The notes beneath the pieces were generated by a model, which ran no database searches, had not been told where the DNA came from, and worked only from the letters and a program-made list of their open reading frames with translations. DNA of 58,295 nt from Chloroflexota bacterium (lineage in GTDB: Bacteria > Chloroflexota > UBA6077 > JACCZL01). The position numbers and the translations under genes are program-made. The stretch is taken from positions 1 to 58,295 of the forward strand of contig JADZEM010000071.1 in NCBI GenBank assembly GCA_020850535.1, in the 5' to 3' direction. Positions 7,849 through 27,342 of the stretch are shown here, one piece after another. How positions within the stretch are numbered: the first letter of the stretch is position 1; the number at the start of each line of letters is the position of its first letter.

Positions 7849-9554
7849 GCGTGGGACACCGGGAGGCCATCGTTTCCAGGGAGGCCCTCACGTCCAGAGA
7901 GGCCCTCACGTCCAGAGAGGCCCTCACGTCCAGAGAGGCCCTCACCCCCCGCCCCCCTCCGCTGCGCGGCGCGAGCATCGGCTACGCCGACGTCCCTCTG
8001 CTCACGAACGACGGGGCCCCTCGCTTCGCGGATCCCCGTGTCGGGGGAGGGGGAGATGGCGCCCCCGCTCCCTGTACGCGGGAACGGGGGCGGGGGGGTG
8101 AGGGCGTTCTCGGCAGTTGCGGCCTTACGTCCCCACGAGTGCCAGGCGGCCACCACCAGCCCGACGACCCCGCTCGCCATCAGCACGGCGATGGCCGGGT
8201 CCACGGGATACCGGTAGCGCTCCTGCGGGCCGTTCAGGGCCGCGCTGGCGACCACCAGGAACAGGACGCTCGCGCCGAGCAGCAGGCCCGGCCGCCACCC
8301 GCGCAGCAGCGAGACCGTCGCGCCGAGCACGAACAACACCAGCGGCAGCGGCGTCCACTGCGATGCCTGCCAGACCCTCAGCGAACTGTTCGCGAAACGG
8401 GCGTCGTCCTCCGAGCGCTGGTTGACCAGCAGTGTGCGCGTTCGGTCGGCCCACTCCACATCCTTGCGTTCGGACTCGTGCTCGCGGAGGCGCATCTCGA
8501 CGCCGTTGAAGATCCGCAGCCCGAACCACAGCGAGCCCTGCACGAAGTAGAGCGGCTGACGGACTATCGCCTGCAACGCCAGGTCGCGCATGACAGTGTT
8601 GACCTCGATAGGGTCCAGGTCAAGCTCTTGCCGCAGCCGCTGCGCGATGGTGCCGTCGGAGTCGCCACGATTGGCCCCCTCCTGAATCAGCTTCGCGGCG
8701 CGGGCCTTGAGCGGGTCAGCCTCCGGGCGGGCCGGATCGGCGAAGACGAAGCCCCGGTCATAGGAGGCCGTACGGGCCACCAGCGTGCGCCCGAAGGTGC
8801 TCGGCGAGGCGAGGTTGTGCTCCAGCTGGTTGCGGATCGACCACGGCGCGATGGCGACGCCGTACCCCAGCCCCACGGCCACCGCTGCCAGCAACGCGCG
8901 CCGCGACGGCCTCGGCCAGGACAGGATACCGAGCGCTCGCCAGGAGGCGGCCGTCAGGTAGGCTGCCAGCACGGCCAGCGGCAGAAACCCCTGGGCAATC
9001 GGCTTGACCATGGCCGCCAGGCCGACCAGCAGGCCGCTCAGCAGCCAGAGCCGCGGGGCGTCGCGGCGACAGGCCCACAGCAGCACCGTCAGCATCAGCG
9101 TGACGCAGAACGCAAACAGCGTCTCGGTCAGCAGGTAGTGCTCGTAGACGACCAGCGGCGCGGAGACCGCCGTCAGCAGGCCGGCCACGACGCCCACAAT
9201 GCGCCCGGCGCCGGCCCGCGGCCCGGCGGCCAGCCGGCCGAGCAGGAAGGCCAGCGCCGCCGTCACCACGCCCAGCAGATGCTGGAGCAGCGTGATGCCT
9301 CGGAGATCGTCGCCGGTCAGGATCAGTGCAAGGACCAGGAAGAGCGGATAGCCAGGGGTGCGTCGCAGCCCCAGCTCGAACTGGCCCGTGTGGACGAGAT
9401 CCCAGGCCGGCAGGAAGTAGGCCTGACTGTCCTTGGCGATGAACGGCACGATCCGCATCGCAAAGCCGAGCTTGAACGCCAGCGCGGCCAGCACCACCAG
9501 GGTCAGGCAGACCGCGTCAGAGTGGCGACGGAGGGTGGCGAGCGCTCCACTCAC
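7845..9554 (-). CDS. PMT/ArnT-like membrane glycosyltransferase (GT-C), paralog 2
   Basis: A 569-residue paralog with Asp42 in the KDSQAY motif of the first loop, RRTPGYPLFL, LLQHLLGV and a C-terminal RYRYPVDPAIAVL. The GTG start at 9554 overlaps the upstream stop by 4 bases (GTGA). After the last membrane segment the frame continues for about 85 residues encoded by a GC-rich hairpin repeat and an 18-bp tandem repeat (REGLSG units). The other paralogs lack this tail, so it is probably read-through of inserted repeats and not a functional domain. The product should be an extracytoplasmic glycosyltransferase using a lipid-linked sugar. Confidence 0.82.
   Translation of the reverse strand: MSGALATLRRHSDAVCLTLVVLAALAFKLGFAMRIVPFIAKDSQAYFLPAWDLVHTGQFELGLRRTPGYPLFLVLALILTGDDLRGITLLQHLLGVVTAALAFLLGRLAAGPRAGAGRIVGVVAGLLTAVSAPLVVYEHYLLTETLFAFCVTLMLTVLLWACRRDAPRLWLLSGLLVGLAAMVKPIAQGFLPLAVLAAYLTAASWRALGILSWPRPSRRALLAAVAVGLGYGVAIAPWSIRNQLEHNLASPSTFGRTLVARTASYDRGFVFADPARPEADPLKARAAKLIQEGANRGDSDGTIAQRLRQELDLDPIEVNTVMRDLALQAIVRQPLYFVQGSLWFGLRIFNGVEMRLREHESERKDVEWADRTRTLLVNQRSEDDARFANSSLRVWQASQWTPLPLVLFVLGATVSLLRGWRPGLLLGASVLFLVVASAALNGPQERYRYPVDPAIAVLMASGVVGLVVAAWHSWGRKAATAENALTPPPPFPRTGSGGAISPSPDTGIREARGPVVREQRDVGVADARAAQRRGAGGEGLSGREGLSGREGLSGREGLPGNDGLPVSHA
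7881..7945. repeat. 18-bp tandem repeat in a glycosyltransferase tail
   Basis: Three full copies and one partial copy of GAGGCCCTCACGTCCAGA, in frame with paralog 2 and translated on the minus strand as repeated REGLSG units just before its stop codon. Confidence 0.9.
8061..8091. repeat. GC-rich REP-like hairpin, copy 1
   Basis: GCCCCCGCTCCC pairs with GGGAACGGGGGC around a 7-base loop with one mismatch. It belongs to the same kind of dispersed hairpin as those at 39009 and 44572. Here it lies inside the coding tail of a glycosyltransferase. Confidence 0.6.
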
Positions 9555-11095
9555 CGGGTCGCCTCGGGGATCGGGCCGCCCGGGGACGGGACCGGCCCGG
9601 GCCGTGCGCCGCCGCGCTCGCCGGCCCCGCCTGCCCTTCCTGCCGCACGCTTCCGCCCTCTCCTGACGGCCACCAGCAGCCAGGACGCCAGGATGCTGAC
9701 GGCGCCCGCCGCCAGCAGCGCGAGGATCGGGTCCAGCGGGTAGCGGTAGCGGGGGACCGGCCCGTCCAACGCCGCCGAGAGCAGCAGGATGCCGAGGCCG
9801 GCCAGCCCCGGGATCAGGGCCGGCCGCGCCGCCAGGCCGGCCAGCAGCAGGCCCAGCGCCGCCAGCAGCGGGAGGATCGGCCCGACGCTCGACGGCTGGA
9901 ACAGGTCGGTCAGCCACTGGGCCGTGTCAACGCCGCGCTGCTCGGCCGCCGTGGCCGGCCCGAGCAGGTGATCGACGCGCGCCTCCCACTGCTCGGCCCA
10001 GTCCTTGCTGCTCCGCATCACCCAGCGGTCGGAGTAGGTGTCTTCCTTCTCCTTGCCCAGGACGATCTGCCACGCCATCTTGAGACTGCCGACGAGGTAG
10101 TAGGTCTTGTTCTCCAGGATGACGTCCGTCGCGACCTCGCGCATGATCCGGTCGGACTGGGCCTGCGTCAGCCCGTACTCTTTCATCAGGCCGGCCTGCG
10201 TGGAGCGCACCGACCGGCTGTTCCGGATCGTGTTGCGCTTGCCGCGAATGAACTGGCGGGCTTCGCTCTTGAAGTCGCCCTCGACGACCGGGCGCGCCTG
10301 GTCGAAGAAGCCCTCGTCGTACTTGATGGTCCGCGCCACCAGGCTGCGCCCCAGGCCACCGGCCGCCGCGAGCGTGCCGTGCTCGGCCAGGTTGCGGAGC
10401 ATCCAGGGAACCAGGACCAGGGCGAACCCGACGCCGACCAGGGCCGTGCCGCGCACGATGGGCCACGGACGCCGCCATGACGCCGGGTGACAGATCAGGA
10501 ACGCCACCGGAACCAGGGCCACCAGCGCCTGCGCCACCGGCCGCGTCAGCGCCGTGACGCCGAGCAGCAGGCCGGCCGCCAGCGCCCAGCCCCACGCGCC
10601 ACCCCGCGCCGCCAGCACCAGCAGCACCAGCGTCGCCAGCAGCAGGAAGGTGAACAGCGTCTCGGTCATGACGCTCTGGCCGGAGAGGATCAGCGCGCCG
10701 TTGGCGGCCACCAGCAGCCCTGCCAGCAGGCCGGCCCAGCGTCCGGCCACCGGCCCGAACGTCAGCCGGCCGAGCAGGTAGGTCAGCAGCGCCAGCCCGA
10801 CGCCGAGCAGGTGCTGCGCGAACGCCAGCGCCCGCAGATCTTCGCCGAGCGTCGCGATGACGCCGGCCACGAAGAAGGCGTATCCGGGCGGCCGGCGCAG
10901 CTCCGGCTCGAACTCGTTGCCGAAGAGCAGGTCGTAGCCGGGCAGGTAGTGCGACTGACTGTCCCCGGTCAGGATGACCGGCACGCGGTACAGGAAGGCC
11001 AGCCGCAGCAGCAGCGCCGTCACGCCGATCACCGAGACGGCGCTCAGGTCAGGATGCCGCCGAACCAGCGCCAGCGCGGAACGTCCGAGCCTCAT
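9551..11095 (-). CDS. PMT/ArnT-like membrane glycosyltransferase (GT-C), paralog 3
   Basis: A 514-residue paralog with Asp45 in the GDSQSHYLPGYD loop, RRPPGYAFFV, FAQHLLGVGL, TRPVAQALV and RYRYPLDPILALL. The ATG at 11095 lies 3 bases after the stop of paralog 4, and its own stop overlaps the start of paralog 2. The extracytoplasmic domain between the sixth and last membrane segments is rich in Arg/Lys/Asp and differs most among paralogs, which would fit different acceptors. The C-terminal tail is basic and Pro/Gly-rich. Function is assigned by fold family only. Confidence 0.85.
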   Translation of the reverse strand: MRLGRSALALVRRHPDLSAVSVIGVTALLLRLAFLYRVPVILTGDSQSHYLPGYDLLFGNEFEPELRRPPGYAFFVAGVIATLGEDLRALAFAQHLLGVGLALLTYLLGRLTFGPVAGRWAGLLAGLLVAANGALILSGQSVMTETLFTFLLLATLVLLVLAARGGAWGWALAAGLLLGVTALTRPVAQALVALVPVAFLICHPASWRRPWPIVRGTALVGVGFALVLVPWMLRNLAEHGTLAAAGGLGRSLVARTIKYDEGFFDQARPVVEGDFKSEARQFIRGKRNTIRNSRSVRSTQAGLMKEYGLTQAQSDRIMREVATDVILENKTYYLVGSLKMAWQIVLGKEKEDTYSDRWVMRSSKDWAEQWEARVDHLLGPATAAEQRGVDTAQWLTDLFQPSSVGPILPLLAALGLLLAGLAARPALIPGLAGLGILLLSAALDGPVPRYRYPLDPILALLAAGAVSILASWLLVAVRRGRKRAAGRAGGAGERGGARPGPVPSPGGPIPEATR

Positions 11096-11098
11096 CCG

Positions 11099-12622
11099 CT
11101 ACACCCCTCGCGGGGCCTGCCCGGCGGCCGGCGGCACCACGGACGGCGGCACGACGGTCGGCGCGGGGCCGGCCACGGAGACACTGCGGCCCCGCGTCGC
11201 CTCGATCAGCCGGCCGACAGCCCAGGTCAGCGCGCCGGCCGCTACCAGCGCGATCAGCGGGTCGGCCGGGTAGCGGTAGCGGACGACCGGGCCGTCCAGC
11301 GCGGCGCAGGTCACGATCAGCGCCAGGGCCGACAGGCTCAGCAGCAGGGCCGGCCGCAGCCGCGCCGAGGCGGCCACGAGGACGGTCCCGAGGACGAACA
11401 GGGCCGGCATCAGGCCGCCCCAGGCGGGCGGCTGCACCAGGTCCACGACGCCACTGGCCCGCTCAAGCTCGTTGCGTTGCGGCGTGCTGGCCCGGCTCAA
11501 CAGGTGCTCGATGCGGTCATCCCATTCGTCCCGGCTCAGGCGGGCGTTCTGGGTCTTCCAGTCCGTGGAGAGCTTCTCCGGCTCGCCGGCCAGCAGGCTC
11601 CAGGTCATCCTGGCCGTGCCGCGAAGGTAGTACCACGGGTTCTCCAGAATGACGTCAGTCGCCAGCACCCGCATGAAGCCGTTGATCTCGGCGTCGGTCA
11701 TCCCGAAGCGATCCTGGACGCGGCGGTAGATCACCCCATCGGAGAGCCGCTGCCGCACGCCGTTCTGCACAAGCTGCCGGGCGATCCCCTCGCGCCGCTC
11801 GTAGATGTCGGCCTGCTTCTCGTCGTACCATTTGAAACCGGTGTCGTGCTTGGCCGTCCGCGCCAGGAGCGTCTGCCCGAGCGCACCGGCCGCCGTCAGA
11901 CTGCCATGCTCGAGCTGATTGCGGATCATCCACGGGAGCATCACCGAGGCCAGCCCGACGCCGATCAGGATGGTCGGCAGGACGATCCGGCGCAGCGAGC
12001 GCTCGTTGACGAGCAGCACGAACGGCAGGACCGGGATCAGCACCTGGGCGACCGGCTTGCAGAGCAGGCTCAGCCCCAACAGCAGACCGGCCCCGAAGAA
12101 GGCTGGACGACGGCCGGATCGCATGGCCCAGAGGAAGACGACGAACGTCAGCAGCAGCAGGAAGATCAGGACCGTCTCGGGCATCAGGTAGTGCTCGGAG
12201 ATCAGCAGCGCGCCGTTCGCCGCCGTGATCAGCGCGGCGATCAGCCCGGCCACCCGACCCACCGTCTGCCGCCCGAGGATGTAGACCAGGACGGCGCAGG
12301 CCACCCCAAGCAGATGCTGCGCGAACGCAATGGCCTGTAGCTCCTCGCCAAACAGCGCCATCGACCCGACCAGGAACAGCGGGTAGGTCGGGGTGCGCCG
12401 CACCGAGATGTCGAAGCCGTAGCCGTTCAGGAGATCCCAGGCCGGCAGGAAGTAGCTGACGCTGTCGCGCAGCAGAAAGACCGGCACGCGGAACGTGAAC
12501 GCCACACGTATGGCCACGGCGACCAGCAGAATCAGGCCGACCGCCACCGCGTCCGGGTGTGCCCTGAGCACCGCGCGGACACGCCCGCCGATCGTGGGTA
12601 CACCCTCCGCGCGATCGGTCAT
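11099..12622 (-). CDS. PMT/ArnT-like membrane glycosyltransferase (GT-C), paralog 4
   Basis: A 507-residue paralog, first of the four in transcription order. Asp53 sits in LRDSVSYFLPAWD, followed by RRTPTYPLFL, FAQHLLGVACAVL, SEHYLMPETV and RYRYPADPLIALV. About 10 membrane segments can be counted. The ATG at 12622 comes 24 bases after the stop of the DPM1/GtrB-like gene, whose product could supply the polyprenyl-phosphate sugar donor. The C-terminal ~35 residues are Pro/Val-rich and probably cytoplasmic or disordered. Confidence 0.85.
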   Translation of the reverse strand: MTDRAEGVPTIGGRVRAVLRAHPDAVAVGLILLVAVAIRVAFTFRVPVFLLRDSVSYFLPAWDLLNGYGFDISVRRTPTYPLFLVGSMALFGEELQAIAFAQHLLGVACAVLVYILGRQTVGRVAGLIAALITAANGALLISEHYLMPETVLIFLLLLTFVVFLWAMRSGRRPAFFGAGLLLGLSLLCKPVAQVLIPVLPFVLLVNERSLRRIVLPTILIGVGLASVMLPWMIRNQLEHGSLTAAGALGQTLLARTAKHDTGFKWYDEKQADIYERREGIARQLVQNGVRQRLSDGVIYRRVQDRFGMTDAEINGFMRVLATDVILENPWYYLRGTARMTWSLLAGEPEKLSTDWKTQNARLSRDEWDDRIEHLLSRASTPQRNELERASGVVDLVQPPAWGGLMPALFVLGTVLVAASARLRPALLLSLSALALIVTCAALDGPVVRYRYPADPLIALVAAGALTWAVGRLIEATRGRSVSVAGPAPTVVPPSVVPPAAGQAPRGV

Positions 12623-12646: not shown

Positions 12647-13735
12647 TTAGCTGCCGCGCGCGCTGCCGCCAACGCCGGCCAGCGGCCGGGCGCCGTTCCG
12701 TCGAGCAGCGGCGGACCGGCCGCCGAACTTCACGTAGCGCACCCCACGGCCCGCGCCGGCATCCGACTGGCGGATCGGCTGCCGGCCGGCCAGCCCCCGA
12801 CCGAGCATCGTCCGGATGACGTAGGTGCGTTTGCCTTGCGACTCGAACCACGTCCGCGTGACCAGCTCCGCCAGCAAGCCTTGGGTGATGAACAGCAGGC
12901 CGGCCAGGAAGGCGAACACGGCGATCAGCATGACCGGGTTGCGGTGGACCCGCACGTCCTCGAAGACGCGCGAGTAGAGCGTGAACAGGACCGCCAGCGC
13001 ACCGAACAGGAAGCAGACCGCGCCGAGGCCGCCGAAGAGCTGGATCGGCTTGGTCGAGTAGCTGCTCAGGAACTTGAGGGTCAGCAGATCCAACAGCACC
13101 TTGATGGTGCGGTTGATGCCGTACTTGGACTTGCCGTACTTGCGCGCCCGGTGGTTGACCGCCAGCTCGGTGACCGTCGCGCCAGACCAGTGCGCGTAGG
13201 CCGGGATGAACCGGTGCATCTCGCCGTACAGGCGGACGTTCTTGAGCACCTCGCGGCGATACGCCTTGAGCGTGCACCCATAGTCGTGCAGCTCGACGCC
13301 GCTCACCTTCGAGATCAGCCAGTTGGCCATCCGCGAGGGGAGCTTGCGGCTGATCTCGGCGTCCTGGCGGTTCTTGCGCCACCCGCTGACGACGTCGAAG
13401 TCGCCCTCGTCCATCGTCTGGAGCAGGCGCGGGATCTCGGCAGGATCGTTCTGGAGATCGCCATCCATGAAGATGACGACGTCCCCGCGCGACGCTTCGA
13501 GGCCGGCGGCCAGCGCCGGCGTCTGCCCGAAGTTGCGGCGGAACTGGATGACGACGACTTCCGGATGCTGCTCGGCGATCTGCTTCAGCAGGCCGAAGCT
13601 GCCATCCTTGCTGCCGTCGTCGACGTACAGGATCTCGTAGGGCCGGCCGAGCTTGACCAGCACGCCCTGGAGCTCTTCATGCAGCTCCGGGATATTCTCG
13701 ACCTCGTTGTAGATGGGGACGACGATAGAGAGCAC
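12647..13735 (-). CDS. DPM1/GtrB-like family 2 glycosyltransferase
   Basis: A 362-residue enzyme with an N-terminal GT-A domain starting at LSIVVPIYNEVEN, the nucleotide-sugar site DDGSKDGS, and the DxD-type motif DGDLQND near residues 90-96. Two C-terminal membrane segments follow (about 230-300). This is the layout of GtrB/dolichol-phosphate-mannose synthase relatives, which load a sugar from a nucleotide donor onto a polyprenyl phosphate at the inner membrane face. The GTG at 13735 is the best start because similarity begins there; the open frame extends far upstream without support. It leads an operon with four GT-C enzymes that would use such donors. Confidence 0.88.
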   Translation of the reverse strand: MLSIVVPIYNEVENIPELHEELQGVLVKLGRPYEILYVDDGSKDGSFGLLKQIAEQHPEVVVIQFRRNFGQTPALAAGLEASRGDVVIFMDGDLQNDPAEIPRLLQTMDEGDFDVVSGWRKNRQDAEISRKLPSRMANWLISKVSGVELHDYGCTLKAYRREVLKNVRLYGEMHRFIPAYAHWSGATVTELAVNHRARKYGKSKYGINRTIKVLLDLLTLKFLSSYSTKPIQLFGGLGAVCFLFGALAVLFTLYSRVFEDVRVHRNPVMLIAVFAFLAGLLFITQGLLAELVTRTWFESQGKRTYVIRTMLGRGLAGRQPIRQSDAGAGRGVRYVKFGGRSAAARRNGARPLAGVGGSARGS

Positions 13736-13904
13736 CAGAACAACCCCGGCCCACGGGATGTGGGGCAGTATACAGCAGACGAGCGAGTGGCAGACGAGAC
13801 CCGCGCACGTAATGTGCCCGGACGCGTCTCTGAACGGCGTATCATGAACCTGGGGCGGCGAGCGCCAGAGTGTCAACCCCTCGACGCCCGGAGGACTCTG
13901 CCGA

Positions 13905-15971
13905 ATGAACCACTCCTCCGACGCAGCACGGTCGCGCCTCGCGTTGCGTGGTCGCGCGGCGCTCACGGGCCTGTTGCTCGTGGGGCTGCTCATCTCTTCG
14001 GCGTTCGCGCCGGCCTCGATGTTCGCGCCGCTGCGCGTGGGCGCGGAGCCGGGCACGTCGTCTGTCGACGCGCCGGACGTCGACCGCTCTGCCCAGCCGA
14101 TGATGTCGCCGGATGTCGATGCGCCTCGGGCCGTCGTCAACCAGGGCGACGCTGAGCCGGGCATCACGCTGATCACGGCGGTCTACAACTCGATCCAGGA
14201 TCGCTTCTTCAAACCGCTCGACTCGCGCGATCTGCTGGACGCCGCCTGGGAAGGCGCGCGGCGGGCGCTGGCCGAGCAGCGCAAGCTGCCCTCGGGCGTC
14301 GCCGATCCGCAGTTCACCGGCGACCGCAACGGCGACCTGCAGGCGTTTGTAGCCCAGTACCGGGCGCTGCTCTCGGCGGCCGGGTCCGGCGTGGACGCCA
14401 ACCGTGTCGCGATGGCGACCTCCGACCTGATGACCCAGAGCGTCGGCGAGCAGCACACGGTCTTCCTCCCGCCGGAGGCGTTCGCGCGCTTCCGCCAGAG
14501 CCTGACCAGCGATTCGGGCCGGGTGGGCCTCGGCATCCTGATCCAGGGGCAGAGCGCGCCGTTCCGGATCGGCTCGGTGGTCCCGGGCGCGCCCGCCGAG
14601 AAGGCCGGCGTGATGGACAACGACATCATCCTGGCGGTCGATGGCCGCAGCACCAGCCGCATGGAGCTGCGCGACGTCTCGGATGCCCTGCGCGGCGAAG
14701 AGGGCCAGAGCGTCACCCTGACCCTGCAGCGCGGCGACGGCGGCCAGACGATGGACATCGTGGTCACCCGGGCGCGCTTCAGCGAGCCGCCGCTGACCAT
14801 GAAGGTGCTCCCTGAGGGCGTCTGCCATTTCCGCCTCTCGACCTTCCCGGTAGCGTTCATCGTCGGGCCGACGGGCCGGACCATCGGCGAGGATCTCGAC
14901 TACTACCTGGAGCAGTGCGAGCAGGCCGGCGGCAAGGGCTGGATCATGGATCTCCGCGGCAACGGCGGCGGCGCCAGCCTCGTACAGGTGCTCGGGCGGT
15001 TCATCGACGCCGGGCCGATCCTCGTGGAGCGCGACAAGATCGGCGGGCGGTACGAACAGGCCACCGACGGTCATCTCTTCCGGGTGCAGCGCCCACTGGT
15101 CGTTCTGATCGACGGCAACTCGGCCTCGGCCTCCGAGGGCTTTGCCTCGGCGGTGCAGGAGTACAAGCGCGGCGTGGTCATGGGCCGTCAGTCGGCCGGC
15201 GCGCTCAACACCGGCAACATCGTGCCGCTGCCGCTGGGCGCGGGCATGATGGTGGCGATCCGGCAGGTCTTCACCGGCAAGCAGGAGATCGCCGTTGACG
15301 AGGTTGGCGTGACGCCGGACGTGTCGCTCAACATGGGGCGCGATCCGTCTGTCGCACCCCCAGAGGCGATTCAAGCAGCGCTTAGCCCGCCGGCCGACGT
15401 CGGGCCGCTGCCGGCCGGGCCGTCCACCACCGATGGGCTCTTGACCGCCGAGCAGATGAAGCAGCGGGCCGCTCCCGTCCTGCTCCAGGCCGGGGATGCC
15501 AGCCGCCCGGAGGACCAGCAGGTCCGTGGCGAGATGGCGTTCGACACGCTGCACTACTACGCCAGCGACTATCCGAGCATCGCCGCCGCCCGCGCCCGCG
15601 CGATCCGCCTCGGCTGGCAGGGCGTCTATGCGCGGTGGATCGGGGCCGGCTTCCCACCCCCATACGCCATCACCGTCAGCTTCTATCGCGACGGCGACGG
15701 CGCACACAAGGACATGCGCGAGATCTACGAGGCGGATGAGCCACGCAATCCGCCCCAGTACAAGGACGTCGATTCGCCGGTGACGCTCGGCGATGAGACG
15801 CTGGCGCAGGTCGGGACCGGCCAGAACGAGGGCCGGATCTGGATCTCGTGGCGGCGCGGCGGGACCGTCTACACGGTGTCGCAGAACGTCCCGCCCGGCG
15901 ACACCGCCAGCTTCGACGAGCTGGCCCGGCTGGCCCAGATCGTGGACTCGCGAGCAGCCGCCAACCCCTGA
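13905..15971 (+). CDS. Secreted S41 (CtpA-like) peptidase with PDZ domain, catalytic Lys not conserved
   Basis: A 688-residue exported protein with a signal peptide around residues 17-36, a PDZ domain about 205-290, and an S41 core with DLRGNGGG (349-356) and DGNSASASEG (403-412). Ser408 aligns with the usual nucleophile. The Lys normally 25 residues later in a GKG motif is Ala433 here (RQSAGALNTG), so the Ser-Lys dyad is incomplete. A further ~160 residues at the C-terminus are unassigned. The ATG at 13905 has GGAGGA 9 bases upstream. It is divergent from the glycosyltransferase operon. It may be a pseudoprotease or use other residues. Confidence 0.8.
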   Translation: MNHSSDAARSRLALRGRAALTGLLLVGLLISSAFAPASMFAPLRVGAEPGTSSVDAPDVDRSAQPMMSPDVDAPRAVVNQGDAEPGITLITAVYNSIQDRFFKPLDSRDLLDAAWEGARRALAEQRKLPSGVADPQFTGDRNGDLQAFVAQYRALLSAAGSGVDANRVAMATSDLMTQSVGEQHTVFLPPEAFARFRQSLTSDSGRVGLGILIQGQSAPFRIGSVVPGAPAEKAGVMDNDIILAVDGRSTSRMELRDVSDALRGEEGQSVTLTLQRGDGGQTMDIVVTRARFSEPPLTMKVLPEGVCHFRLSTFPVAFIVGPTGRTIGEDLDYYLEQCEQAGGKGWIMDLRGNGGGASLVQVLGRFIDAGPILVERDKIGGRYEQATDGHLFRVQRPLVVLIDGNSASASEGFASAVQEYKRGVVMGRQSAGALNTGNIVPLPLGAGMMVAIRQVFTGKQEIAVDEVGVTPDVSLNMGRDPSVAPPEAIQAALSPPADVGPLPAGPSTTDGLLTAEQMKQRAAPVLLQAGDASRPEDQQVRGEMAFDTLHYYASDYPSIAAARARAIRLGWQGVYARWIGAGFPPPYAITVSFYRDGDGAHKDMREIYEADEPRNPPQYKDVDSPVTLGDETLAQVGTGQNEGRIWISWRRGGTVYTVSQNVPPGDTASFDELARLAQIVDSRAAANP

Positions 15972-16052: not shown

Positions 16053-16538
16053 CTACCGGCGGTCCTGGCGGTGCAGCTCGTGGCCGAGGATCGTCCGCAG
16101 GGCGACGAACGCTGCCGTCAGCCGCTGCGCCGAGGACAGCGGAACATACCGCCCGCCCTCGGTTCGGATGAACCCGTTCCGTTCGAGTTGTTCCAGCCGC
16201 ATGGCGACCATCGCCGACGACTGCGCCTCCTCCGTCAGGACGGCTTCAGGCAGCGGCCCCTGGCGCAGGCGCAGGAGCATCGAGACGGTGACGCTGCTGA
16301 TGACCAGCGTGAAGAGGAAGATGTACAGCTCGCTGAGGAAGGCGAACAGCGCCAGCCCGGCCACGACCTCCGACGAGATGCCGTAGAGCACCAGCAAGGC
16401 CAGGGCCAGCAGCACGCCGACCGCCCCTCCCCCGACCACGTACCGGATCACGTTGCTGATCGGCAGTGGCAGCCGTACCACCACGAGATGACACCCGATT
16501 GCCAGCAGGAACGCCCCCAGCGACAGCACGAGCCACAT
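16053..16538 (-). CDS. Membrane protein with C-terminal winged-helix-like region (pair member 2)
   Basis: A 161-residue protein with three predicted membrane segments (about 2-24, 31-54 and 58-90) and a soluble C-terminus. That region reads as a helix, a turn and a wing: MVAMRLEQLERNGFIR, then EGGRYVPLSSAQRLTAAF. The pattern of short wing followed by a Leu/Ala helix resembles MarR/ArsR-type winged helices. It starts 5 bases after its partner gene and has the same design. I do not recognise a named family. It may be a membrane-tethered regulator or scaffold for the neighbouring glycan genes; that is inference from layout. Confidence 0.7.
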   Translation of the reverse strand: MWLVLSLGAFLLAIGCHLVVVRLPLPISNVIRYVVGGGAVGVLLALALLVLYGISSEVVAGLALFAFLSELYIFLFTLVISSVTVSMLLRLRQGPLPEAVLTEEAQSSAMVAMRLEQLERNGFIRTEGGRYVPLSSAQRLTAAFVALRTILGHELHRQDRR

Positions 16539-16543
16539 CTCGG

Positions 16544-17107
16544 CTACCCGGCCTTGACCTGGGTCCGCGTGTCGACCAGCGACCGCAACGCGCCGAGCGC
16601 CCGCGCCGCTGTCCGCCCGCGCGGCGTCAGCGAAACCTGCCCATCCACCACGGAGACGAGGCCGAGCCGCACCAGTGTGTCGGTGCGCCCGAGCTTCTTG
16701 CGCGAGCCGATCCCCTCAAGGTGCTGCATGTCGAGCGGCGAGCGGGTCGCATTGGACTCGACGACCGCCCGCACGATCTGGAGCGAGTAGCTGCCTTCCG
16801 TCAACGACCACACTTCGAGGAACGAGAGGCTGTAGATGCCGTGGAGCATCACGAGGCCCACGAGCACCGCGAACGAGACGCCGGAGGCTGGGACGAGCAG
16901 CCAGAGGCCCGCCACCACCAGGGTGAAGACCATCGCCGACGCGAGGTGGTACCGAAACGCGCCCCGTTCTGTCACGAAAGCACGGAAGCGCCGCAACACT
17001 ACGAGATAGGCCAGCAGGTGCAGCAGCAGGTAGCCGACGCCCGCCAACCAGAGAGGCAACTGAGTCACGGCTGTCTGTCCCACATCGGCGACGATTGTAT
17101 CAGGCAT
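16544..17107 (-). CDS. Membrane protein with C-terminal winged-helix-like region (pair member 1)
   Basis: A 187-residue protein with three membrane segments (about 15-39, 54-77 and 78-100). Its cytosolic C-terminus has the strong winged-helix signature LVRLGLVSVVDGQVSLTPRG followed by RTAARALGALRSL. It is followed at once by a gene of the same layout. The ATG at 17107 has no clear Shine-Dalgarno sequence. It lies between a sugar aminotransferase and a DPM1/GT-C cluster, which suggests a role in surface polysaccharide assembly or its control. No named family is recognised. Confidence 0.72.
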   Translation of the reverse strand: MPDTIVADVGQTAVTQLPLWLAGVGYLLLHLLAYLVVLRRFRAFVTERGAFRYHLASAMVFTLVVAGLWLLVPASGVSFAVLVGLVMLHGIYSLSFLEVWSLTEGSYSLQIVRAVVESNATRSPLDMQHLEGIGSRKKLGRTDTLVRLGLVSVVDGQVSLTPRGRTAARALGALRSLVDTRTQVKAG

Positions 17108-17189: not shown

Positions 17190-17233
17190 GAGGCGCGCCG
17201 GGCTGACAGGCGAGGCGCGCCGGGCTGACAGGC
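17190..17233. repeat. 22-bp direct duplication at a gene end
   Basis: Two adjacent copies of a 22-bp unit beginning GAGGCGCGCCGGGCTGACAG abut the stop codon of the DegT-family gene. The unit contains the GGCTGAC word found in other repeats of this window. Confidence 0.85.
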
Positions 17234-18387
17234 TAGCGGACCGATCGGCCATCAGCGGGGCGCGCACCTGTGTAGAACGCCCGGATCGCCTCCGCGACGT
17301 ACGTCAACTCCTCGTCCGTCAGGGTGTGGTAGATCGGGATGGCCAGGATCTGCTCGGCCTGCCGCTCGGTGACGGGGAACGCGCCGGGCGCGTAGTCCAG
17401 CTCGGCGGCGACCGTCTGCAGGTGCATCGGGATCGCATAGTGGACCGCCGTGCCGATGCCACGCTCCTTCAAGTAGGCCTGGAGAGCGTCGCGGTCTTCA
17501 GCCAGGATCTTGAAGACCTGATAGACGGCCCGCTCATACGGCTCCTCGGCGGGCGTCCGCACCTGCGGGATATCGGCCAGGAGCGCACGGTACCGGCGGG
17601 CGTTGGCGCGCCGCTGCTCGGTCCACGCCTCCAGGTACTTGAGCTTGACCAGCAGCGCCGCCGCCTGGATCGTGTCGAGGCGCGAGTTCCCGCTCCAGAC
17701 CACGGCGTCGTCTCGGGTCTTCAGCCCGAGGTTTCGCATGATCCTGACCTCTTCATACAGCGCGCGGTTGTCGGTCGTGAGGATGCCGCCGTCGCCAATG
17801 GCGCTCAGCGTCTTAAGCGGGTGCAAACTGAACGCCCCGGCCGCCCCGAACGCGCCCACGCGCGTGCCACGGTACTCGGCCAGGACCGCCTGGGCAGCAT
17901 CCTCGACGACGGGAATCCCATGCTCGTCGGCGATCCGCATGATCTCATCCATGCGGGCCGCGCGCCCCGTGAGGTGGACGGGCACAATCGCCTTCGTCCG
18001 TGGGGTGATCGCGCGCAGCAGGCAGGCAGGGTCCATGTTGTAGTCGTCGCCCACGTCCACCAGGACCGGGCGCGCGCCGATCATCGCCGCGCAGCCGGCG
18101 CTGGCGATGAACGAGTTCGCGGCAGTGATGACCTCGTCGCCCGGGCCGACGCCGAGCGCCCGCAGGGCCAGGATCAGTGCATCGGTGCCCGAGTTCACCC
18201 CGACGGCGTACTGCACGCCGATGGCCTCGGCGAACTGGCGCTCCAGCTCGTCGACCTCGGCCCCGAGGACGAACATCCCGCTGTCGATGACGCGGCCCAT
18301 CGCCTCCAGCAGCTCGCCCTTGATGGCGGCGTGCTGTGCGGCCAGGTTGACGAACGGCACTTGCATGGTCTTCACGCTGTTCACCAC
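17233..18387 (-). CDS. DegT/DnrJ/EryC1/StrS family sugar aminotransferase
   Basis: A 384-residue PLP enzyme that adds an amino group to a nucleotide-linked keto-sugar. Visible motifs are NSGTDALILAL near the cofactor phosphate site, VVEDAAQA with Asp163, and the Schiff-base Lys192 in SLHPLKTLSAIGDGG. Length is typical. The GTG at 18387 is chosen because AGAGG lies 6 bases upstream; an in-frame ATG at 18366 starts at the conserved MQVPFVNL and is the alternative. It probably makes an amino-deoxy-sugar for the glycan assembled by the neighbouring transferases. The exact keto-sugar is not resolvable. Confidence 0.9.
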   Translation of the reverse strand: MVNSVKTMQVPFVNLAAQHAAIKGELLEAMGRVIDSGMFVLGAEVDELERQFAEAIGVQYAVGVNSGTDALILALRALGVGPGDEVITAANSFIASAGCAAMIGARPVLVDVGDDYNMDPACLLRAITPRTKAIVPVHLTGRAARMDEIMRIADEHGIPVVEDAAQAVLAEYRGTRVGAFGAAGAFSLHPLKTLSAIGDGGILTTDNRALYEEVRIMRNLGLKTRDDAVVWSGNSRLDTIQAAALLVKLKYLEAWTEQRRANARRYRALLADIPQVRTPAEEPYERAVYQVFKILAEDRDALQAYLKERGIGTAVHYAIPMHLQTVAAELDYAPGAFPVTERQAEQILAIPIYHTLTDEELTYVAEAIRAFYTGARPADGRSVR

Positions 18388-18481: not shown

Positions 18482-21325
18482 TTACGAGCAGCCCCGCCCG
18501 CCGCCATCAACCTGGAGCAGGTCGCTCTGGTAGGCCGGTCCGCGCTTCTCTGTCGTCGATGGCTGCACGGTCACGAAGAGTGTCCCGGCGACGCCGTCTG
18601 GCACGACGAGCGGACCGGGCGCTGCCTGCTCGCGCAGCAGGCAGCTGACGCCAGATGGCTCGCGCAGGTACAGCCGCAGCATCGTCCCGGCCTCGGGCGT
18701 CTCCTTCTGATGCGCGTACCGATAGGTTACGTCGAGCGAGAGTCCCCCCGCCGTCTGGCGCGGCGTCACCAGCACGCGCGATGCGCCCGCTGCACCGGGC
18801 GCCGGCTTCAGGTACGGCGGGTAGACCCAGTCCAGCTCGACGATGGCCCAGCTTCCGGCCGGCGATGGATCGCGCGCGGTCACGCGGTACTGAAGGTACG
18901 GCTGCTCGGCACTGTCGGCGCGACGCACCAGCGGCAGGTCGTTGCAGGAGCCGCCATACCCCCGGAGGTCCTGCGCCCGGATCAGCGCATCGGCCAGCGA
19001 CTGGTACCGCGTGCACAGGTAGTAGCGCGGCTCGCGGTAGGCCGAGTTGGTGGCCCGGTCCCGCAGCCAGACGTACGTTTGCAGCTCCTGGGCCACCCGG
19101 TAGCCGTCGTCGGTCAGCTCGATGCGCGCCTGCCCGATGGTCGCGTCGATGTACGCCCACTGGCCGGTGTAGGCAGCGGGCGGGGCCATGTACCGATTCC
19201 CGACGAATGACTGGCCGAGGTAGGGCGGCTCGGCCAGGGTTTTCAGGAAGGCAAAATGGGTCGGCGGCAGCAGCGTCAGATAGCCAAGCTGCACCTTGCC
19301 CCAGGCCACGACGCTCACGCCGCCCAGCCCTATCAGCGCCACCCCGAGGAGGCCCAATGTCACACTGGCCGGGAGACGTCTTCGACCGAGATCGGGCGGG
19401 CCGAGGTGATGGCGCAGCAGGCCCGCTGCCCCGGCGAGCGCTCGGCAGCCAGCCTGAACGGCGACAGACAAACCGATGGCCAGGGCCACATCTACCGCGA
19501 ACACGAACAGTGGCGCGCCGCGCGAGAGGTAGCCGCTGATCACGTAGCCGGGCGAGAGCACGTAGGTGGCGTAGAGGGCAACATCGCCGAGCACGACGAA
19601 CGAGAGCAGGCCGCCGAGGTGGCTTGCGCGGTCTCCTCCGAGGAGAGGGCGACTGCCGAACAGCACCAGCGCGGCGGCCAGCCCGGCGGCCGCCAGCAGC
19701 AGCGCCACGACCGCCCCGTGCGGCAGCCCCAGCCCGAGATACCCCTGCCAGAGCGGCGCGGCCTGCTGGTTGTAGAGCGCCGACTGCCCGCGCACGAAGG
19801 CGTTGACGGCCAGCAGCAGCCCGGCGGCCAGGACCGCCCGCCCGAGCGCGATGCGCGCCAGCAGTTGCCAGCGTGGGAGCGTGCCCCAGAGCAGCCCCAG
19901 CGCGACCACGCCCGCCACGAGCAGGCCGGCGTACCCGAGGCCGCGCGTCTGGCGCAGGAACGACGCCTGACTCTGCGGCAGACCCAGGACGGCTTGATCT
20001 CGCAGCAGGGTGACGGCCAGCAGCAGCGTCGGCACGCCAAGCAGGACCAGCACAAGGGTTGCCCGCGGCGCAGCCGTCCGCCGACATTCGGCCCAGGCCG
20101 GCCAGGTCAGCGGCATCTCGAAGCGCAGCGACAGGCGCACCAGCCCGAGCGGCGTCCGCCAGCGGTCTCGCAGCAGCCACGCCGAGCCGGCCGCCTGCCG
20201 CCCACCCCGCACGAGCGGCGACGGCCAGCGGACCGAGCCGAGCAGCCAGCCAAGCCAGACGGTCCCCAGCAGGAGCGTGAGGAACGGCGTGAGCGCCTCG
20301 AAGTGCCACGTCGCGAGCTGTCCGAAGAAGGCGCCCGGGCCGCGCAGGCCGCGCACGTCGATGATGTTGAACCAGAACACGATGGGATGCTGGCGAAAGA
20401 ACGTATCCAGCCGCTCCAGCATGGCCGGGCTGTCAGCGGCGAGGTTCCGAGCGAAGTAGGTCAGGTACAGGTCCTCGGCGAAGACGCGCGGCCCCAGGAA
20501 GAGCGCGCCCTGGAGCATCAAGATCGCCAGGGCCAGCCCACCACCGGCCGCCTGGAGCGCCCAGAATCGCAGCGCCGTCCGCCAGGCCCAGCGGTACCAC
20601 CAGCCAGCAGAGAACGCCGTGAACAGCGCAACGTACGCCACGAAGATCAGCTCAAAATAGAACAGCGCCAGGAAGTTGAGGAACGTCAGCACCGCCCAGC
20701 GCCGGGAGCGGTTCCCACCCAGGCCATCCACGCACAGCAGCGACGAGAACACGAAGAAGACGTGCCAGACGCGGTAGGTCACCACCTGCCACTGCGCGAA
20801 GAACAGGTAGTCGGTCAGCAACAGCAGGCAGGCGAGCAGGGCGAAGCGTGGCCCGGCCCGGCGGGCCAGAAACTCGAAGGCGAAGACGACGGCCGCGATG
20901 CCGATGGTGAACGTCGTCACGACGATCTGCGATTCGGCGGTCCGCGCCCCGAGTGCGTAGATCAGGTAGGCGAAGAGGCGTGGGAAGTTTCCCTGGTGGC
21001 TGTGGACGAACGGATGGGCGGCCGGCTCCGGCCCGTACGCCTCGTCGGTGAGGCCCCAACTGGTGAAGAAGTCGAACGTGTACAGGTTGTGGGCGTGCCA
21101 GAGCGCCGAGAACGTCTCGGTGTTGTCGTAGACGTAGGGCAGCCGGTCCGTGCTGAAGACAAACCAGCCGTACAGACCAAGGTAGATCGCGAGCAGCAGC
21201 CCGAGCGACACCGTATGCCAGCGCCGGTCGGCTGGGGGGCGCCCGGCCGTCACGGACGATACCGCGCCTGGCACAATCTGCGAGCGCTCAGCCTCAGGCG
21301 TGGGATTCGACACGGGGCCGCGCAT
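18482..21325 (-). CDS. Large polytopic membrane protein, GT-C-like
   Basis: A 947-residue protein with roughly 14-18 hydrophobic segments and a C-terminal extracytoplasmic domain from about residue 690. The N-terminus has one membrane segment followed by a loop with an acidic motif (YDNTETFSALWHAHNLY, 70-86), as in GT-C enzymes with a catalytic Asp/Glu in the first loop. Cys residues near 790, 815 and 890 in the C-terminal domain could form disulfides. It sits between a methyltransferase and a sugar aminotransferase. It could be a glycosyltransferase or a glycan polymerase/flippase. I cannot name a specific family. Confidence 0.75.
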   Translation of the reverse strand: MRGPVSNPTPEAERSQIVPGAVSSVTAGRPPADRRWHTVSLGLLLAIYLGLYGWFVFSTDRLPYVYDNTETFSALWHAHNLYTFDFFTSWGLTDEAYGPEPAAHPFVHSHQGNFPRLFAYLIYALGARTAESQIVVTTFTIGIAAVVFAFEFLARRAGPRFALLACLLLLTDYLFFAQWQVVTYRVWHVFFVFSSLLCVDGLGGNRSRRWAVLTFLNFLALFYFELIFVAYVALFTAFSAGWWYRWAWRTALRFWALQAAGGGLALAILMLQGALFLGPRVFAEDLYLTYFARNLAADSPAMLERLDTFFRQHPIVFWFNIIDVRGLRGPGAFFGQLATWHFEALTPFLTLLLGTVWLGWLLGSVRWPSPLVRGGRQAAGSAWLLRDRWRTPLGLVRLSLRFEMPLTWPAWAECRRTAAPRATLVLVLLGVPTLLLAVTLLRDQAVLGLPQSQASFLRQTRGLGYAGLLVAGVVALGLLWGTLPRWQLLARIALGRAVLAAGLLLAVNAFVRGQSALYNQQAAPLWQGYLGLGLPHGAVVALLLAAAGLAAALVLFGSRPLLGGDRASHLGGLLSFVVLGDVALYATYVLSPGYVISGYLSRGAPLFVFAVDVALAIGLSVAVQAGCRALAGAAGLLRHHLGPPDLGRRRLPASVTLGLLGVALIGLGGVSVVAWGKVQLGYLTLLPPTHFAFLKTLAEPPYLGQSFVGNRYMAPPAAYTGQWAYIDATIGQARIELTDDGYRVAQELQTYVWLRDRATNSAYREPRYYLCTRYQSLADALIRAQDLRGYGGSCNDLPLVRRADSAEQPYLQYRVTARDPSPAGSWAIVELDWVYPPYLKPAPGAAGASRVLVTPRQTAGGLSLDVTYRYAHQKETPEAGTMLRLYLREPSGVSCLLREQAAPGPLVVPDGVAGTLFVTVQPSTTEKRGPAYQSDLLQVDGGGRGCS

Positions 21326-21361: not shown

Positions 21362-22234
21362 CTAGAACCGCCACCGGTACAAGTTGACATTGAACGGGTA
21401 CAGGAAGCGCGGCACCTGGAGCCACGGCAGGCTGAAGGCTGGCGGGAAGGTGCTGAGCATCGAGGTATCGAATCGCTGCACGGAGAACGCTGTCGGTGGG
21501 AGGGCTGCCCGCCCGGCCGCCTCGTAGACGTGCTCGGCGTAGAAGAACATGTCGAGCTTCGGGCCGAGCACCTTGCGCGCCGTGTTCCAGAGCAGCCGCT
21601 CGGCGTGCCAGACCGGCAGCCACGGGCTGACCTCGAAGATCGCCAGCTCGCCGCCGGGCTTCACGACCCGCCCAAGCTCCCGCAGCGTCCGCATCAGGTT
21701 CTGCCGGTTCTGTGCGACGGTCGTTCCGGTGATGTGGTGGACCGCGTAATAGGCGAGCACCAGGTCGACCGACCGATCGGCGAGCGGGGCTTCGAGCGCC
21801 GAGCCGTAGACCCGCATGTCAACCTCGCGGTTCACGCGGATCGACTCATAGGACGCTTCAAGGCCGATAACGTAGGTGTCGGCCGGCTTGGTGTACGGCA
21901 GCGTCGGCCCGCACCCGATGTCCAGCACGATCATTCCGGGCTTCAGCATCGCCTCGACCACGCCGGCCTGCCGCTCGTAGCAGAGGCAGCGCACGCCTTC
22001 ACTGGCGTTGCCTTCGGTCATCACCTCGTGGCGGTCGTCGAAGAACGAGAGCGCCGAGGTGTCGCCGAGCACGACGACATCATGGGTCAGCAGACCGACG
22101 TACCCACACGCCGCGTTCTGGCAGCGAAGCTCCCCGCCCTGGGCGGCAAACCGGGAGCGGCACCGCGGACAGGCGAGCAATCGCTCAGCATCATCCCCAA
22201 GCGACGAAGCAGCCATCGGCGCGATCAGACTCAA
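21362..22234 (-). CDS. SAM-dependent methyltransferase with N-terminal zinc ribbon
   Basis: A 290-residue protein. Cys22, Cys25, Cys38 and Cys43 form a Trm112-like zinc ribbon, then a class I methyltransferase fold begins with the SAM motif VLDIGCGP (103-110) and continues through SALEAPLADRSVDLVLAYYA. The segment RELGRVVKPGGELAIFEV is the post-II/III region. The start is TTG at 22234 or, if shorter, ATG at 22216. Its place before the large membrane protein and sugar aminotransferase suggests methylation of a sugar or lipid-linked glycan. The acceptor is unknown. Confidence 0.82.
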   Translation of the reverse strand: MSLIAPMAASSLGDDAERLLACPRCRSRFAAQGGELRCQNAACGYVGLLTHDVVVLGDTSALSFFDDRHEVMTEGNASEGVRCLCYERQAGVVEAMLKPGMIVLDIGCGPTLPYTKPADTYVIGLEASYESIRVNREVDMRVYGSALEAPLADRSVDLVLAYYAVHHITGTTVAQNRQNLMRTLRELGRVVKPGGELAIFEVSPWLPVWHAERLLWNTARKVLGPKLDMFFYAEHVYEAAGRAALPPTAFSVQRFDTSMLSTFPPAFSLPWLQVPRFLYPFNVNLYRWRF

Positions 22235-23053: not shown

Positions 23054-23695
23054 CTACAGGTAGCGGACGACCTGGACGACCTTCCCCTGTACGCGCAGTT
23101 GGGACGGATCGACGTAGATCGGCTGCATGGCCGCGTTCGCAGGCTGCAGCCGTACCTGACCACGCTCGCGGTACAGCCGCTTGAGGGTGGCGACGCCCTC
23201 CGTGGACGGCCCCTGGCTCATCAGCAGCGCCACCACGATGTCGCCGTTCTCAGCCGTCTCCTGCGGGCGGATCACCACCAGATCGCCGTCGTCGATCAGA
23301 TCCTCGATCATCGACTTGCCCTTGACCTGGAGGGCGTAGCAGCCGTCCGGCACGGTGCCCGCGCCAAGCTCCAGGTAGTCATCGTGCTGTTCGAGCGCCT
23401 CAATCGGCTCACCAGCGGCGATCCGGCCGACAATCGGCACCCGCACCAGCGATGGCCGCGCAAGCGTGGCGGTCTGGCCGGGCTGCCCCACCAGCCCCAG
23501 CCCGCGCGACACTTCCCGATCCCGGCGGATCATCCCGCTCCGTTCGAGCGCGCGCAGGTTGTAGTCGACCACGGAGGTCGAGGAAATCCCGACGGCCTGG
23601 CCGATCTCCCGGATACTCGGCGGGTAGCCGTGGTCACTGGTGTACTCAGCCAGAAAGTCGAGGATCCGCTGCTGGCGGTCGGACAGCTTCCGCAT
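23054..23695 (-). CDS. lexA: LexA repressor
   Basis: A 213-residue SOS repressor. The N-terminal winged helix (LSDRQQRILDFLAEY to about 65) binds DNA and the C-terminal S24 domain self-cleaves when RecA is activated. The cleavage bond Ala94-Gly95 is in RIAAGEPIEA, the nucleophile is Ser128 in KGKSMIEDL, and the general base is Lys172 in TLKRLYRE. A ~7-residue insertion (SQGPSTEG) lengthens the Ser-Lys spacing relative to E. coli. ATG at 23695 follows GAGGAG by 5 bases. A LexA box overlaps its own promoter, so it is autoregulated. Confidence 0.97.
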   Translation of the reverse strand: MRKLSDRQQRILDFLAEYTSDHGYPPSIREIGQAVGISSTSVVDYNLRALERSGMIRRDREVSRGLGLVGQPGQTATLARPSLVRVPIVGRIAAGEPIEALEQHDDYLELGAGTVPDGCYALQVKGKSMIEDLIDDGDLVVIRPQETAENGDIVVALLMSQGPSTEGVATLKRLYRERGQVRLQPANAAMQPIYVDPSQLRVQGKVVQVVRYL

Positions 23696-26415: not shown

Positions 26416-27342
26416 ATGCGGTACACCACCTTCGGACGGACCGGCCTCACCGTCTCGCGGCTCTCGATGGGCTGCAATCGGCTCGGCGATCCTGGCGCCG
26501 ACCCGGCTCAGTGGCCGCCTCTGGTCCGCAAGGCGCTCGACCTGGGCGTCACGTTCTTCGACACCTCCGAGAACTACAACGAGAGCCGCAGCGAGTCTGT
26601 CCTCGGGGAGGCCATCAGCGGCTACGATGGTCCGACCGTCATCGCCACCAAGGGCGGCTTCGGAACCGGCGCAGGCATCATCCGCGACTTCTCGGCCGAA
26701 GCGATCCTGCGCGGCGCGCGCGGCAGTCACGAGCGGCTGCGCCGCAAGAGCATCGAGCTGTACATGCTCCACAGCCCGACCGTCGAGCAGTTGGAGCAGT
26801 CCACCTACCCTGACGCCATCGAGCAGCTCAAGGCCGAAGGCACGATCGACTACTTCGGCATCTCGACCTCGAACCACGCCTCGGGCATCTGGGCCATCGA
26901 GCACGGCGCGGACTTCCTCCAGATCGAGTACGACATGCTCAACCCGACCGCCGAGGCTGAGCTGCTGCCGCTCGCGATCGAGCGCAACATCGGCATCATG
27001 ATCCGGACACCGCTGGCTCGTGGCCTGCTGAGCGGCAAGTTCGCGGCGGGCCAGCCGATCCCGGCCGAGCAGCAGTGGCGTCGCCCGACCGGCGATCAAC
27101 TCCAGCTACGCCTCGACCGTATCGAGCAGCTCCGCTTCCTGATCCGGCCGGGTCAGACGCTGGCGCAGGCGGCGCTGCGCTGGCTGCTGGCCCAGCCCGG
27201 CGTCCACTGTGTGATCCCCGGCGCGCGCACCGTCGAGCAGCTTGAGGACAACATCAGCGCCATCGACGGGGACATCACCGAGCACGAGCTGGCCCGCGTC
27301 AAGGAGATCCAGGCCGGCTGGTGGAAGGACGGTCGCTGGTAG
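26416..27342 (+). CDS. Aldo/keto reductase, tandem copy 1
   Basis: A 308-residue AKR-family oxidoreductase with tetrad Asp49 and Tyr54 (FFDTSENYN), Lys79 (IATKGG) and His119 (YMLHSP), and an NADP phosphate-binding C-terminal region GVHCVIPGARTVEQLEDN. ATG at 26416 follows GAGGAGA by 9 bases. A close paralog follows after 168 bases. These enzymes reduce aldehydes or keto-sugars; given the acid-sugar and sugar ABC genes nearby, a sugar substrate is plausible but unproven. Confidence 0.92.
   Translation: MRYTTFGRTGLTVSRLSMGCNRLGDPGADPAQWPPLVRKALDLGVTFFDTSENYNESRSESVLGEAISGYDGPTVIATKGGFGTGAGIIRDFSAEAILRGARGSHERLRRKSIELYMLHSPTVEQLEQSTYPDAIEQLKAEGTIDYFGISTSNHASGIWAIEHGADFLQIEYDMLNPTAEAELLPLAIERNIGIMIRTPLARGLLSGKFAAGQPIPAEQQWRRPTGDQLQLRLDRIEQLRFLIRPGQTLAQAALRWLLAQPGVHCVIPGARTVEQLEDNISAIDGDITEHELARVKEIQAGWWKDGRW

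What the first reader, a model, noticed from the sequence alone, without database searches (positions are those of the whole stretch)
16053..17107. Two adjacent membrane proteins with matching 3-TM plus winged-helix layout
Both small proteins have three membrane segments then a cytosolic domain with a winged-helix pattern (clearest in LVRLGLVSVVDGQVSLTPRG). They are separated by 5 bases and sit inside a glycan cluster. Membrane-tethered winged-helix pairs of this size are not a family I recognise. They could be heterodimeric membrane regulators or non-DNA-binding adaptors of a glycosyl-transfer complex.
Basis: partly seen in the sequence, partly recalled or inferred. Interest (0 to 1): 0.65.

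Follow-up and report, generated by a model that had tools for sequence, protein, structure and literature searches.

The report
Paired membrane winged-helix proteins beside glycan genes
Two small neighbouring genes encode a matched pair of related membrane proteins that end in a winged-helix domain in the cell interior; the pair recurs, always beside genes that build surface sugars, in a few distantly related bacteria, and belongs to no named protein family.

Summary
A (16544-17107, minus strand, 187 aa) and B (16053-16538, minus strand, 161 aa) are real genes 5 bases apart. Each has three membrane segments, N-out/C-in, and a C-terminal cytosolic domain. AlphaFold2 gives B a confident winged helix (pLDDT about 90 there; best PDB matches PadR/LmrR/MarR/HxlR, Z 10-11.6). 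A has the same helix-strand order at low confidence. The soluble domains of A and B are homologous (hhalign 97.3%, E 2e-11; best of 60 shuffled controls 3.3%). The pair occurs four times: here, again in the same genome (contig C111), in a Chloroflexota MAG, and in a MAG labelled Actinobacteria; a fifth genome has A alone. All five loci lie among glycan genes with a large GT-C-like membrane protein; in three the nearby GT2 has no membrane segment. No Pfam, NCBIfam, PHROGs or PADLOC family claims window A or B. Conservation peaks at the membrane-cytosol junction and B's last helix, not in the wing or B's DNA-reading helix; PadR DNA-contact motifs are missing; the domain follows TM3 with no linker. 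I therefore favour a heterodimeric membrane adaptor of lipid-linked glycan assembly (0.45) over a membrane-tethered regulator (0.30). Function is untested.

The parts
16544..17107 (-). Protein A, 187 aa: three membrane segments, N-out, then a cytosolic winged-helix-type domain
   Evidence: ORF and coding GC3; homologs 44% in G011 and by profile in C111, G009, AC_55; AF2 helix/strand order
16844..17053 (-). A: the three hydrophobic segments (residues 19-37, 50-68, 70-88)
   Evidence: hydropathy; AF2 helices 3-43, 47-71, 76-118
16547..16786 (-). A: junction helix and winged-helix-type domain (residues 108-187)
   Evidence: hhalign of the soluble parts of A and B 97.3%, E 2e-11; AF2 order H-H-E-E-H at low confidence
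16053..16538 (-). Protein B, 161 aa: three membrane segments, N-out, then a cytosolic winged helix
   Evidence: ORF and coding GC3; homologs in C111, G009, AC_55; AF2 pLDDT 77, winged helix about 90; PDB matches Z 10-11.6
16299..16532 (-). B: the three hydrophobic segments (residues 3-21, 33-51, 62-80)
   Evidence: hydropathy; AF2 helices 2-21, 27-52, 56-91
16056..16295 (-). B: winged-helix domain (residues 82-161), continuous with TM3, wing reduced to a 2-residue turn
   Evidence: AF2 H56-91, H98-103, H108-120, E124-127, E130-133, H135-160
17233..18387 (-). DegT/DnrJ/EryC1 aminotransferase, first gene upstream of A on the same strand
   Evidence: PF01041 5e-109; 54% identical to the DegT of the AC_55 locus
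18482..21325 (-). 947-aa multi-span membrane protein, GT-C-like, same strand
   Evidence: 14 hydrophobic segments; no Pfam family; GT-C assignment is inference from size, topology and context
21362..22234 (-). Class I methyltransferase, start of the run MT - GT-C-like - DegT - A - B
   Evidence: PF08241 9e-12
17190..17233 (+). Two exact head-to-tail copies of a 22-base sequence between DegT and A; possible control element, unproven
   Evidence: no other exact copy in the genome, nearest others have 2 mismatches
12647..13834 (-). GT2 with its own membrane segments, then three GT-C (PMT_2-type) paralogs down to 6373; wider glycan neighbourhood
   Evidence: PF00535 2e-32, PF13231 1e-15; paralogs 38-44% identical

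Best explanation
A and B are two ancient paralogs that work as one heterodimeric unit in the cytoplasmic membrane. Their winged-helix domains sit directly on the inner face of the membrane and act as protein-protein adaptors. They would pair through their last helices and hold cytosolic glycan enzymes (GT2, SDR, aminotransferase) beside the polyprenyl-linked glycan machinery and its GT-C enzyme, rather than read DNA. Shown here: pairing, homology of the soluble domains, topology (by hydropathy and charge), B's winged-helix fold (by prediction), glycan context, and the pattern of conservation. Inferred: the heterodimer, binding of enzymes, and absence of DNA binding.
For: (1) The pair is kept in order and close together in four loci whose enzymes differ. 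(2) Soluble domains homologous: hhalign 97.3%, E 2e-11, 60 shuffles at most 3.3%. (3) Among the three canonical members, conservation is highest at the TM3-cytosol junction (A 'YNLAERGFSL' 93% identity, B 'LFLLYMPFYY' 77%) and in B's last helix ('AVKxLWxLGPGG' 70-78%). It is low in A's wing (13%) and in B's helix 2, helix 3 and wing (17-33%). (4) In B the TM3 helix runs straight into helix 1 with no linker, and the wing turn is 2 residues. (5) None of the three PadR DNA-contact motifs (PMC3506622) is present in any of nine members; the stretch around window B's helix 3 has net charge -2. (6) GT-C-like proteins lie in all five loci. GT2s in G009, AC_55 and G011 have no membrane segment, the situation in which human DPM1 needs DPM3 as anchor (PMC7728079). 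(7) In C111, G009 and AC_55 A starts between 4 bases inside and about 28 bases after the previous gene, so the pair is embedded in an enzyme operon.
Against: No complex was modelled or measured. The start of helix 3 in canonical A ('GxGxxWMxxKRI', 60% identity) is conserved and partly basic, which would suit DNA or another ligand. Soluble domains are on average mildly basic (net -2 to +8). No single soluble enzyme is present in all loci: GT2 is not adjacent in the window or C111, and DegT was not found in C111 or G009. G011 has A without B. Sso10a also has a short wing and binds DNA (own knowledge). The loss of PadR motifs only excludes PadR-style DNA reading.
Confidence: 0.45

Rival explanations
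1. Membrane-tethered one-component regulators: the three membrane segments sense an envelope or carrier-lipid signal, and the paired winged helices bind DNA as a heterodimer to control the glycan cluster.
For: The nearest folds of B are DNA-binding PadR/MarR/HxlR regulators. Transmembrane transcription regulators are common and 27% have more than two TM regions (PMC10269533). Canonical A has a conserved extracytoplasmic 'TPPDLGFLP' loop (67%) that could be a sensor. A unique tandem 22-base repeat lies just upstream of A. Window A's helix-3 region is basic (5 K/R against 1 acid).
Against: No linker between TM3 and the domain; reduced wing; PadR motifs absent; conservation low in the wing and in B's helix 3. 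The tandem repeat is not found at the second copy of the pair. The window and G011 A proteins have a shortened outer loop. Three of four pairs have little room for a promoter of their own.
Confidence: 0.3
2. Accessory subunits of a lipid-linked sugar transporter or flippase (GtrA-like in role): the membrane part is the working part and the winged helix is a cytosolic lid or regulatory domain, as FeoC is proposed to be for FeoB.
For: GT-C enzymes act on the outer face and need flipped carrier-linked sugars (established knowledge). The strongest constraint is at TM3 and its cytosolic end, with a conserved outer loop in canonical A. GT-C-like genes in all five loci.
Against: The membrane parts of A and B show no significant similarity to each other; three segments is few for a transporter.
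Confidence: 0.13
3. Two generic small membrane proteins of unknown role whose shared layout and context reflect hitch-hiking in variable glycan loci rather than a joint function.
For: The family is rare and patchy, sequence drifts fast (22-44% identity), G011 has A alone, and surface-glycan loci collect orphan genes.
Against: Pairing in four loci, including two in one genome with different neighbours, and homologous soluble domains.
Confidence: 0.1

Closest known systems
PadR subfamily 2 (LmrR, bcPadR1) and HxlR/MarR winged-helix regulators
   Same: B's soluble domain has the same predicted fold (Z 10-11.6 over about 80-98 residues) with a long last helix, which in PadR-s2 is the dimerisation helix
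   Different: Preceded by three membrane segments; none of the PadR-s2 motifs YGYE, EGT(L/I)YPxLxRLE, G(P/R)RKYYx(L/I)TxxG; encoded as a pair of paralogs; no Pfam regulator family reached
Transmembrane transcription regulators (CadC/ToxR, archaeal ArnR/ArnR1)
   Same: Winged-helix or HTH domain in the cytosol, anchored in the membrane; ArnR/ArnR1 are also two related membrane-bound proteins
   Different: ArnR/ArnR1 have an N-terminal HTH, HAMP and sensor domains and two C-terminal TMs (PMC6396743); here three N-terminal TMs run straight into a C-terminal winged helix without linker or sensor domain
DPM2/DPM3 subunits of eukaryotic dolichyl-phosphate mannose synthase
   Same: Small paired membrane proteins associated with a GT2 that lacks its own membrane segment (three of five loci); a functional analogy only
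   Different: DPM2 is described as a 2-TM protein; no winged helix is known to me in DPM2/DPM3; no sequence relation is claimed; the association with GT2 is by gene neighbourhood only
FeoC, a small winged-helix protein of the FeoABC transporter
   Same: A winged helix tied to a membrane machine (own knowledge; a lead only)
   Different: FeoC is soluble and single; no homology tested
Pfam PF25213 HVO_A0261_N
   Same: Weak hits from window A, window B, G009 B and AC_55 B
   Different: 14.4-15.1 bits against a cut-off of 35

Membership tests
PadR-like regulators (PF03551), subfamily 2 | wHTH fold with one C-terminal dimerisation helix | tested here: met
   B model matches PadR/LmrR at Z 10-11.6; for A only weak matches; dimerisation itself not tested
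PadR-like regulators (PF03551), subfamily 2 | Sequence motifs YGYE(I/L), EGT(L/I)YPxLxRLE, G(P/R)RKYYx(L/I)TxxG | tested here: not met
   No motif in any of nine members (motifs from PMC3506622); no PF03551 hit
PadR-like regulators (PF03551), subfamily 2 | Two-domain protein with the wHTH at the N-terminus | tested here: not met
   Three N-terminal membrane segments in 9 of 9 members; the winged helix is C-terminal
Transmembrane transcription regulators (TTR) | At least one transmembrane region | tested here: met
   Three in each protein
Transmembrane transcription regulators (TTR) | A recognised DNA-binding domain model | tested here: not met
   No DNA-binding Pfam or NCBIfam model reaches its cut-off in window A or B; in relatives (Pfam only) just HemN_C in C111 B at 24.3 against 24.0
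Transmembrane transcription regulators (TTR) | Binds DNA and changes transcription | not testable with these tools
   Sequence evidence leans against but does not decide
HVO_A0261_N (PF25213) | Pfam gathering score 35 bits | tested here: not met
   14.4-15.1 bits
DPM2/DPM3-type GT2 membrane subunits | Found with a GT2 that lacks membrane segments | tested here: inconclusive
   True in G009, AC_55 and G011, not for the window or C111
DPM2/DPM3-type GT2 membrane subunits | Sequence or structural homology to DPM2/DPM3 | not tested
   No DPM sequence was compared directly; no DPM family appeared in the Pfam scans

The most novel reading that the evidence does not exclude
A previously undescribed family of paired, paralogous membrane proteins in which two winged helices, normally DNA-binding, have been turned into membrane-surface docking domains that organise lipid-linked glycan assembly across different gene clusters and distant bacterial lineages.
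Probability: 0.35. Interest if true: 0.7.

Novelty: new variant of a known kind. Interest (0 to 1): 0.5.

Why it matters
If the adaptor reading is right, the winged helix gains a non-DNA role at the membrane surface in bacterial glycan assembly, and a two-gene marker becomes available for an unrecognised kind of glycan locus. If the regulator reading is right, it would be a heterodimeric membrane-tethered regulator with an unusual inverted layout (three membrane segments first, winged helix last, no linker). Either way a pair of orphan proteins gains a family definition and testable partners.

Tried and rejected
Known families: Pfam, NCBIfam, PADLOC and PHROGs gave nothing above cut-off for window A or B. 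HemN_C in C111 B (24.3 bits, cut-off 24) was taken as a partial winged-helix match, not membership. PDB sequence search: mostly sub-threshold winged helices, 2pg4 for A and YodB for B. Plasmids and IMG/VR: no relatives, so no sign of a mobile or phage element. A direct BLAST of window A against window B finds nothing; the relation shows only in profiles. Profile cross-hits of 18-28 bits between A and B were first taken as proof, then discounted, because an unrelated LysE-type transporter (G281, L028) scored 22 bits on its membrane part; the soluble-only hhalign with shuffled controls replaced them. The G015 hit is a membrane stretch of an unrelated protein. The tree puts A and B on opposite sides but with weak support (49/23), so one duplication is likely, not shown. 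AF2 used only window, L017 and L018 rows, as the tool requires. In the structural second look A's rows are mostly helix packing; no conclusion on A's membrane fold was drawn.

Full report
WHAT IS THERE. Two minus-strand ORFs lie at 16544-17107 (A, 187 aa) and 16053-16538 (B, 161 aa), with 5 bases between A's stop and B's start. Both have coding-type third-position GC (0.87, 0.91). They close a same-strand run: methyltransferase (21362-22234), a 947-aa multi-span protein (18482-21325), a DegT/DnrJ/EryC1 aminotransferase (17233-18387), A, B. The gaps are 36, 94, 125 and 5 bases. Below B an S41 protease (13905-15971, plus strand) converges; beyond it lie a GT2 and three GT-C paralogs.

RELATIVES. 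The same genome (7.65 Mb, 227 contigs) holds a second A-B pair on contig C111, in the same order with 125 bases between the two; B against B' gives blastp E 1e-9 over 83 residues. A lone A, 44% identical, is in G011 of the same order. Profiles found a third pair in G009 of the same order, which is MAG CP_BM_ER_18, labelled Chloroflexota. A pattern scan of the species genomes (84,980 held) added a fourth pair, in MAG AC_55, labelled Actinobacteria. Four hundred genomes of the window's phylum gave no further true member, nor did 396 of AC_55's phylum. The family is rare and patchy, but the species scan used only two short peptide patterns, so more divergent members would be missed.

ARCHITECTURE. 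All nine members have exactly three hydrophobic segments; K/R-rich first loops put the N-terminus outside and the C-terminal domain in the cytosol. AF2 on shallow alignments gives B a clear winged helix (H56-91 running from TM3 into helix 1, H98-103, H108-120, E124-127, E130-133, H135-160). The nearest solved folds are PadR, LmrR, MarR and HxlR regulators at Z 10-11.6. A has the same order of elements at low confidence.

A AND B ARE PARALOGS. Full-length profiles align at 97.7%. Because hydrophobic stretches alone can mislead (a LysE-type transporter scored 22 bits), I compared the soluble parts alone: 97.3%, E 2e-11, score 58.9. The best of 60 column-shuffled controls reached 3.3% and score 17. 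The membrane parts alone show no significant similarity. The tree separates A from B but with weak support.

CONTEXT. C111: a 1150-aa YfhO-like protein overlapping A by 4 bases, and an Acyl_transf_3. G009: YfhO, methyltransferase, GT2-SDR fusion, A, B, Acyl_transf_3. AC_55: a 531-aa multi-span GT-C-like protein and a DegT 54% identical to the window's, then transketolase, GT2, epimerase, a nucleotidyltransferase-PfkB protein, SDR (58.5% identical to the SDR part of the G009 fusion), a SIS protein, a HAD-like protein (read from sequence), transaldolase, A, B. G011: GT2, GT2, A, a DegT remnant, then a WecB-like epimerase, an oxidoreductase and a UDP-sugar dehydrogenase (the last three read from sequence). 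So five of five loci are glycan loci with a large multi-span GT-C-like protein, but no single soluble enzyme is constant. The GT2s next to or in line with A-B in G009, AC_55 and G011 have no membrane segments.

FUNCTION. Three features speak against ordinary DNA reading. Conservation is highest at the membrane-cytosol junction and at B's last helix, and low in the wing of A and in helix 2, helix 3 and wing of B. The domain follows TM3 without linker and has a 2-residue wing turn. The PadR-s2 DNA-contact motifs (PMC3506622) are absent and the stretch around window B's helix 3 is net acidic. Features that keep the regulator alive: the fold itself, a conserved basic start of helix 3 and a conserved outer loop in canonical A, the basic helix-3 region of window A, a tandem 22-base repeat upstream of A (not found at the second pair), and the known abundance of multi-TM regulators (PMC10269533). 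I commit to a heterodimeric membrane adaptor for lipid-linked glycan assembly at 0.45, with the regulator at 0.30.

COMPARISON. It works like, but is not shown to be a member of, three things: PadR-fold dimers (fold shared, motifs and layout not), transmembrane transcription regulators (TM met, recognised DNA-binding model not met, DNA binding untested), and DPM2/DPM3 (functional analogy for a TM-less GT2; PMC7728079). No existing family in the libraries searched claims window A or B.

LIMITS. AF2 used three-row alignments. Heterodimer, enzyme docking and absence of DNA binding are inferences.

Noticed in passing
window 17190-17233: Two exact head-to-tail copies of GAGGCGCGCCGGGCTGACAGGC at the DegT stop codon and upstream of A; no other exact copy in the genome. 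Could be a control element or a slipped duplication.
   Followed up: partly
window 6373-12622: Three tandem GT-C (PMT_2-type) paralogs on the minus strand, 38-44% identical to each other, downstream of a GT2.
   Followed up: partly
window 18482-21325: A 947-aa protein with 14 hydrophobic segments that matches no Pfam family; GT-C-like by layout.
   Followed up: partly
window 23054-23695 (-): A LexA-like repressor (read from sequence) lies just upstream of the methyltransferase of this run.
   Followed up: no
window 26416-27342 and 27496-28443: Two adjacent aldo/keto-reductase-like genes with near-identical starts, a tandem duplication by eye.
   Followed up: no
L018/L032 (MAG AC_55): A sugar locus with transketolase, transaldolase, SIS, HAD-like and nucleotidyltransferase-PfkB genes, suggesting an unusual heptose-type or branched sugar; A-B follows the transaldolase.
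   Followed up: partly
L017:8305-9972: A GT2 fused to a short-chain dehydrogenase; in AC_55 the same two are separate genes (45% and 58.5% identical).
   Followed up: partly
L008:8892-9311: In G011 the gene after the lone A looks like a DegT aminotransferase remnant; only its C-terminal part is found in frame.
   Followed up: partly
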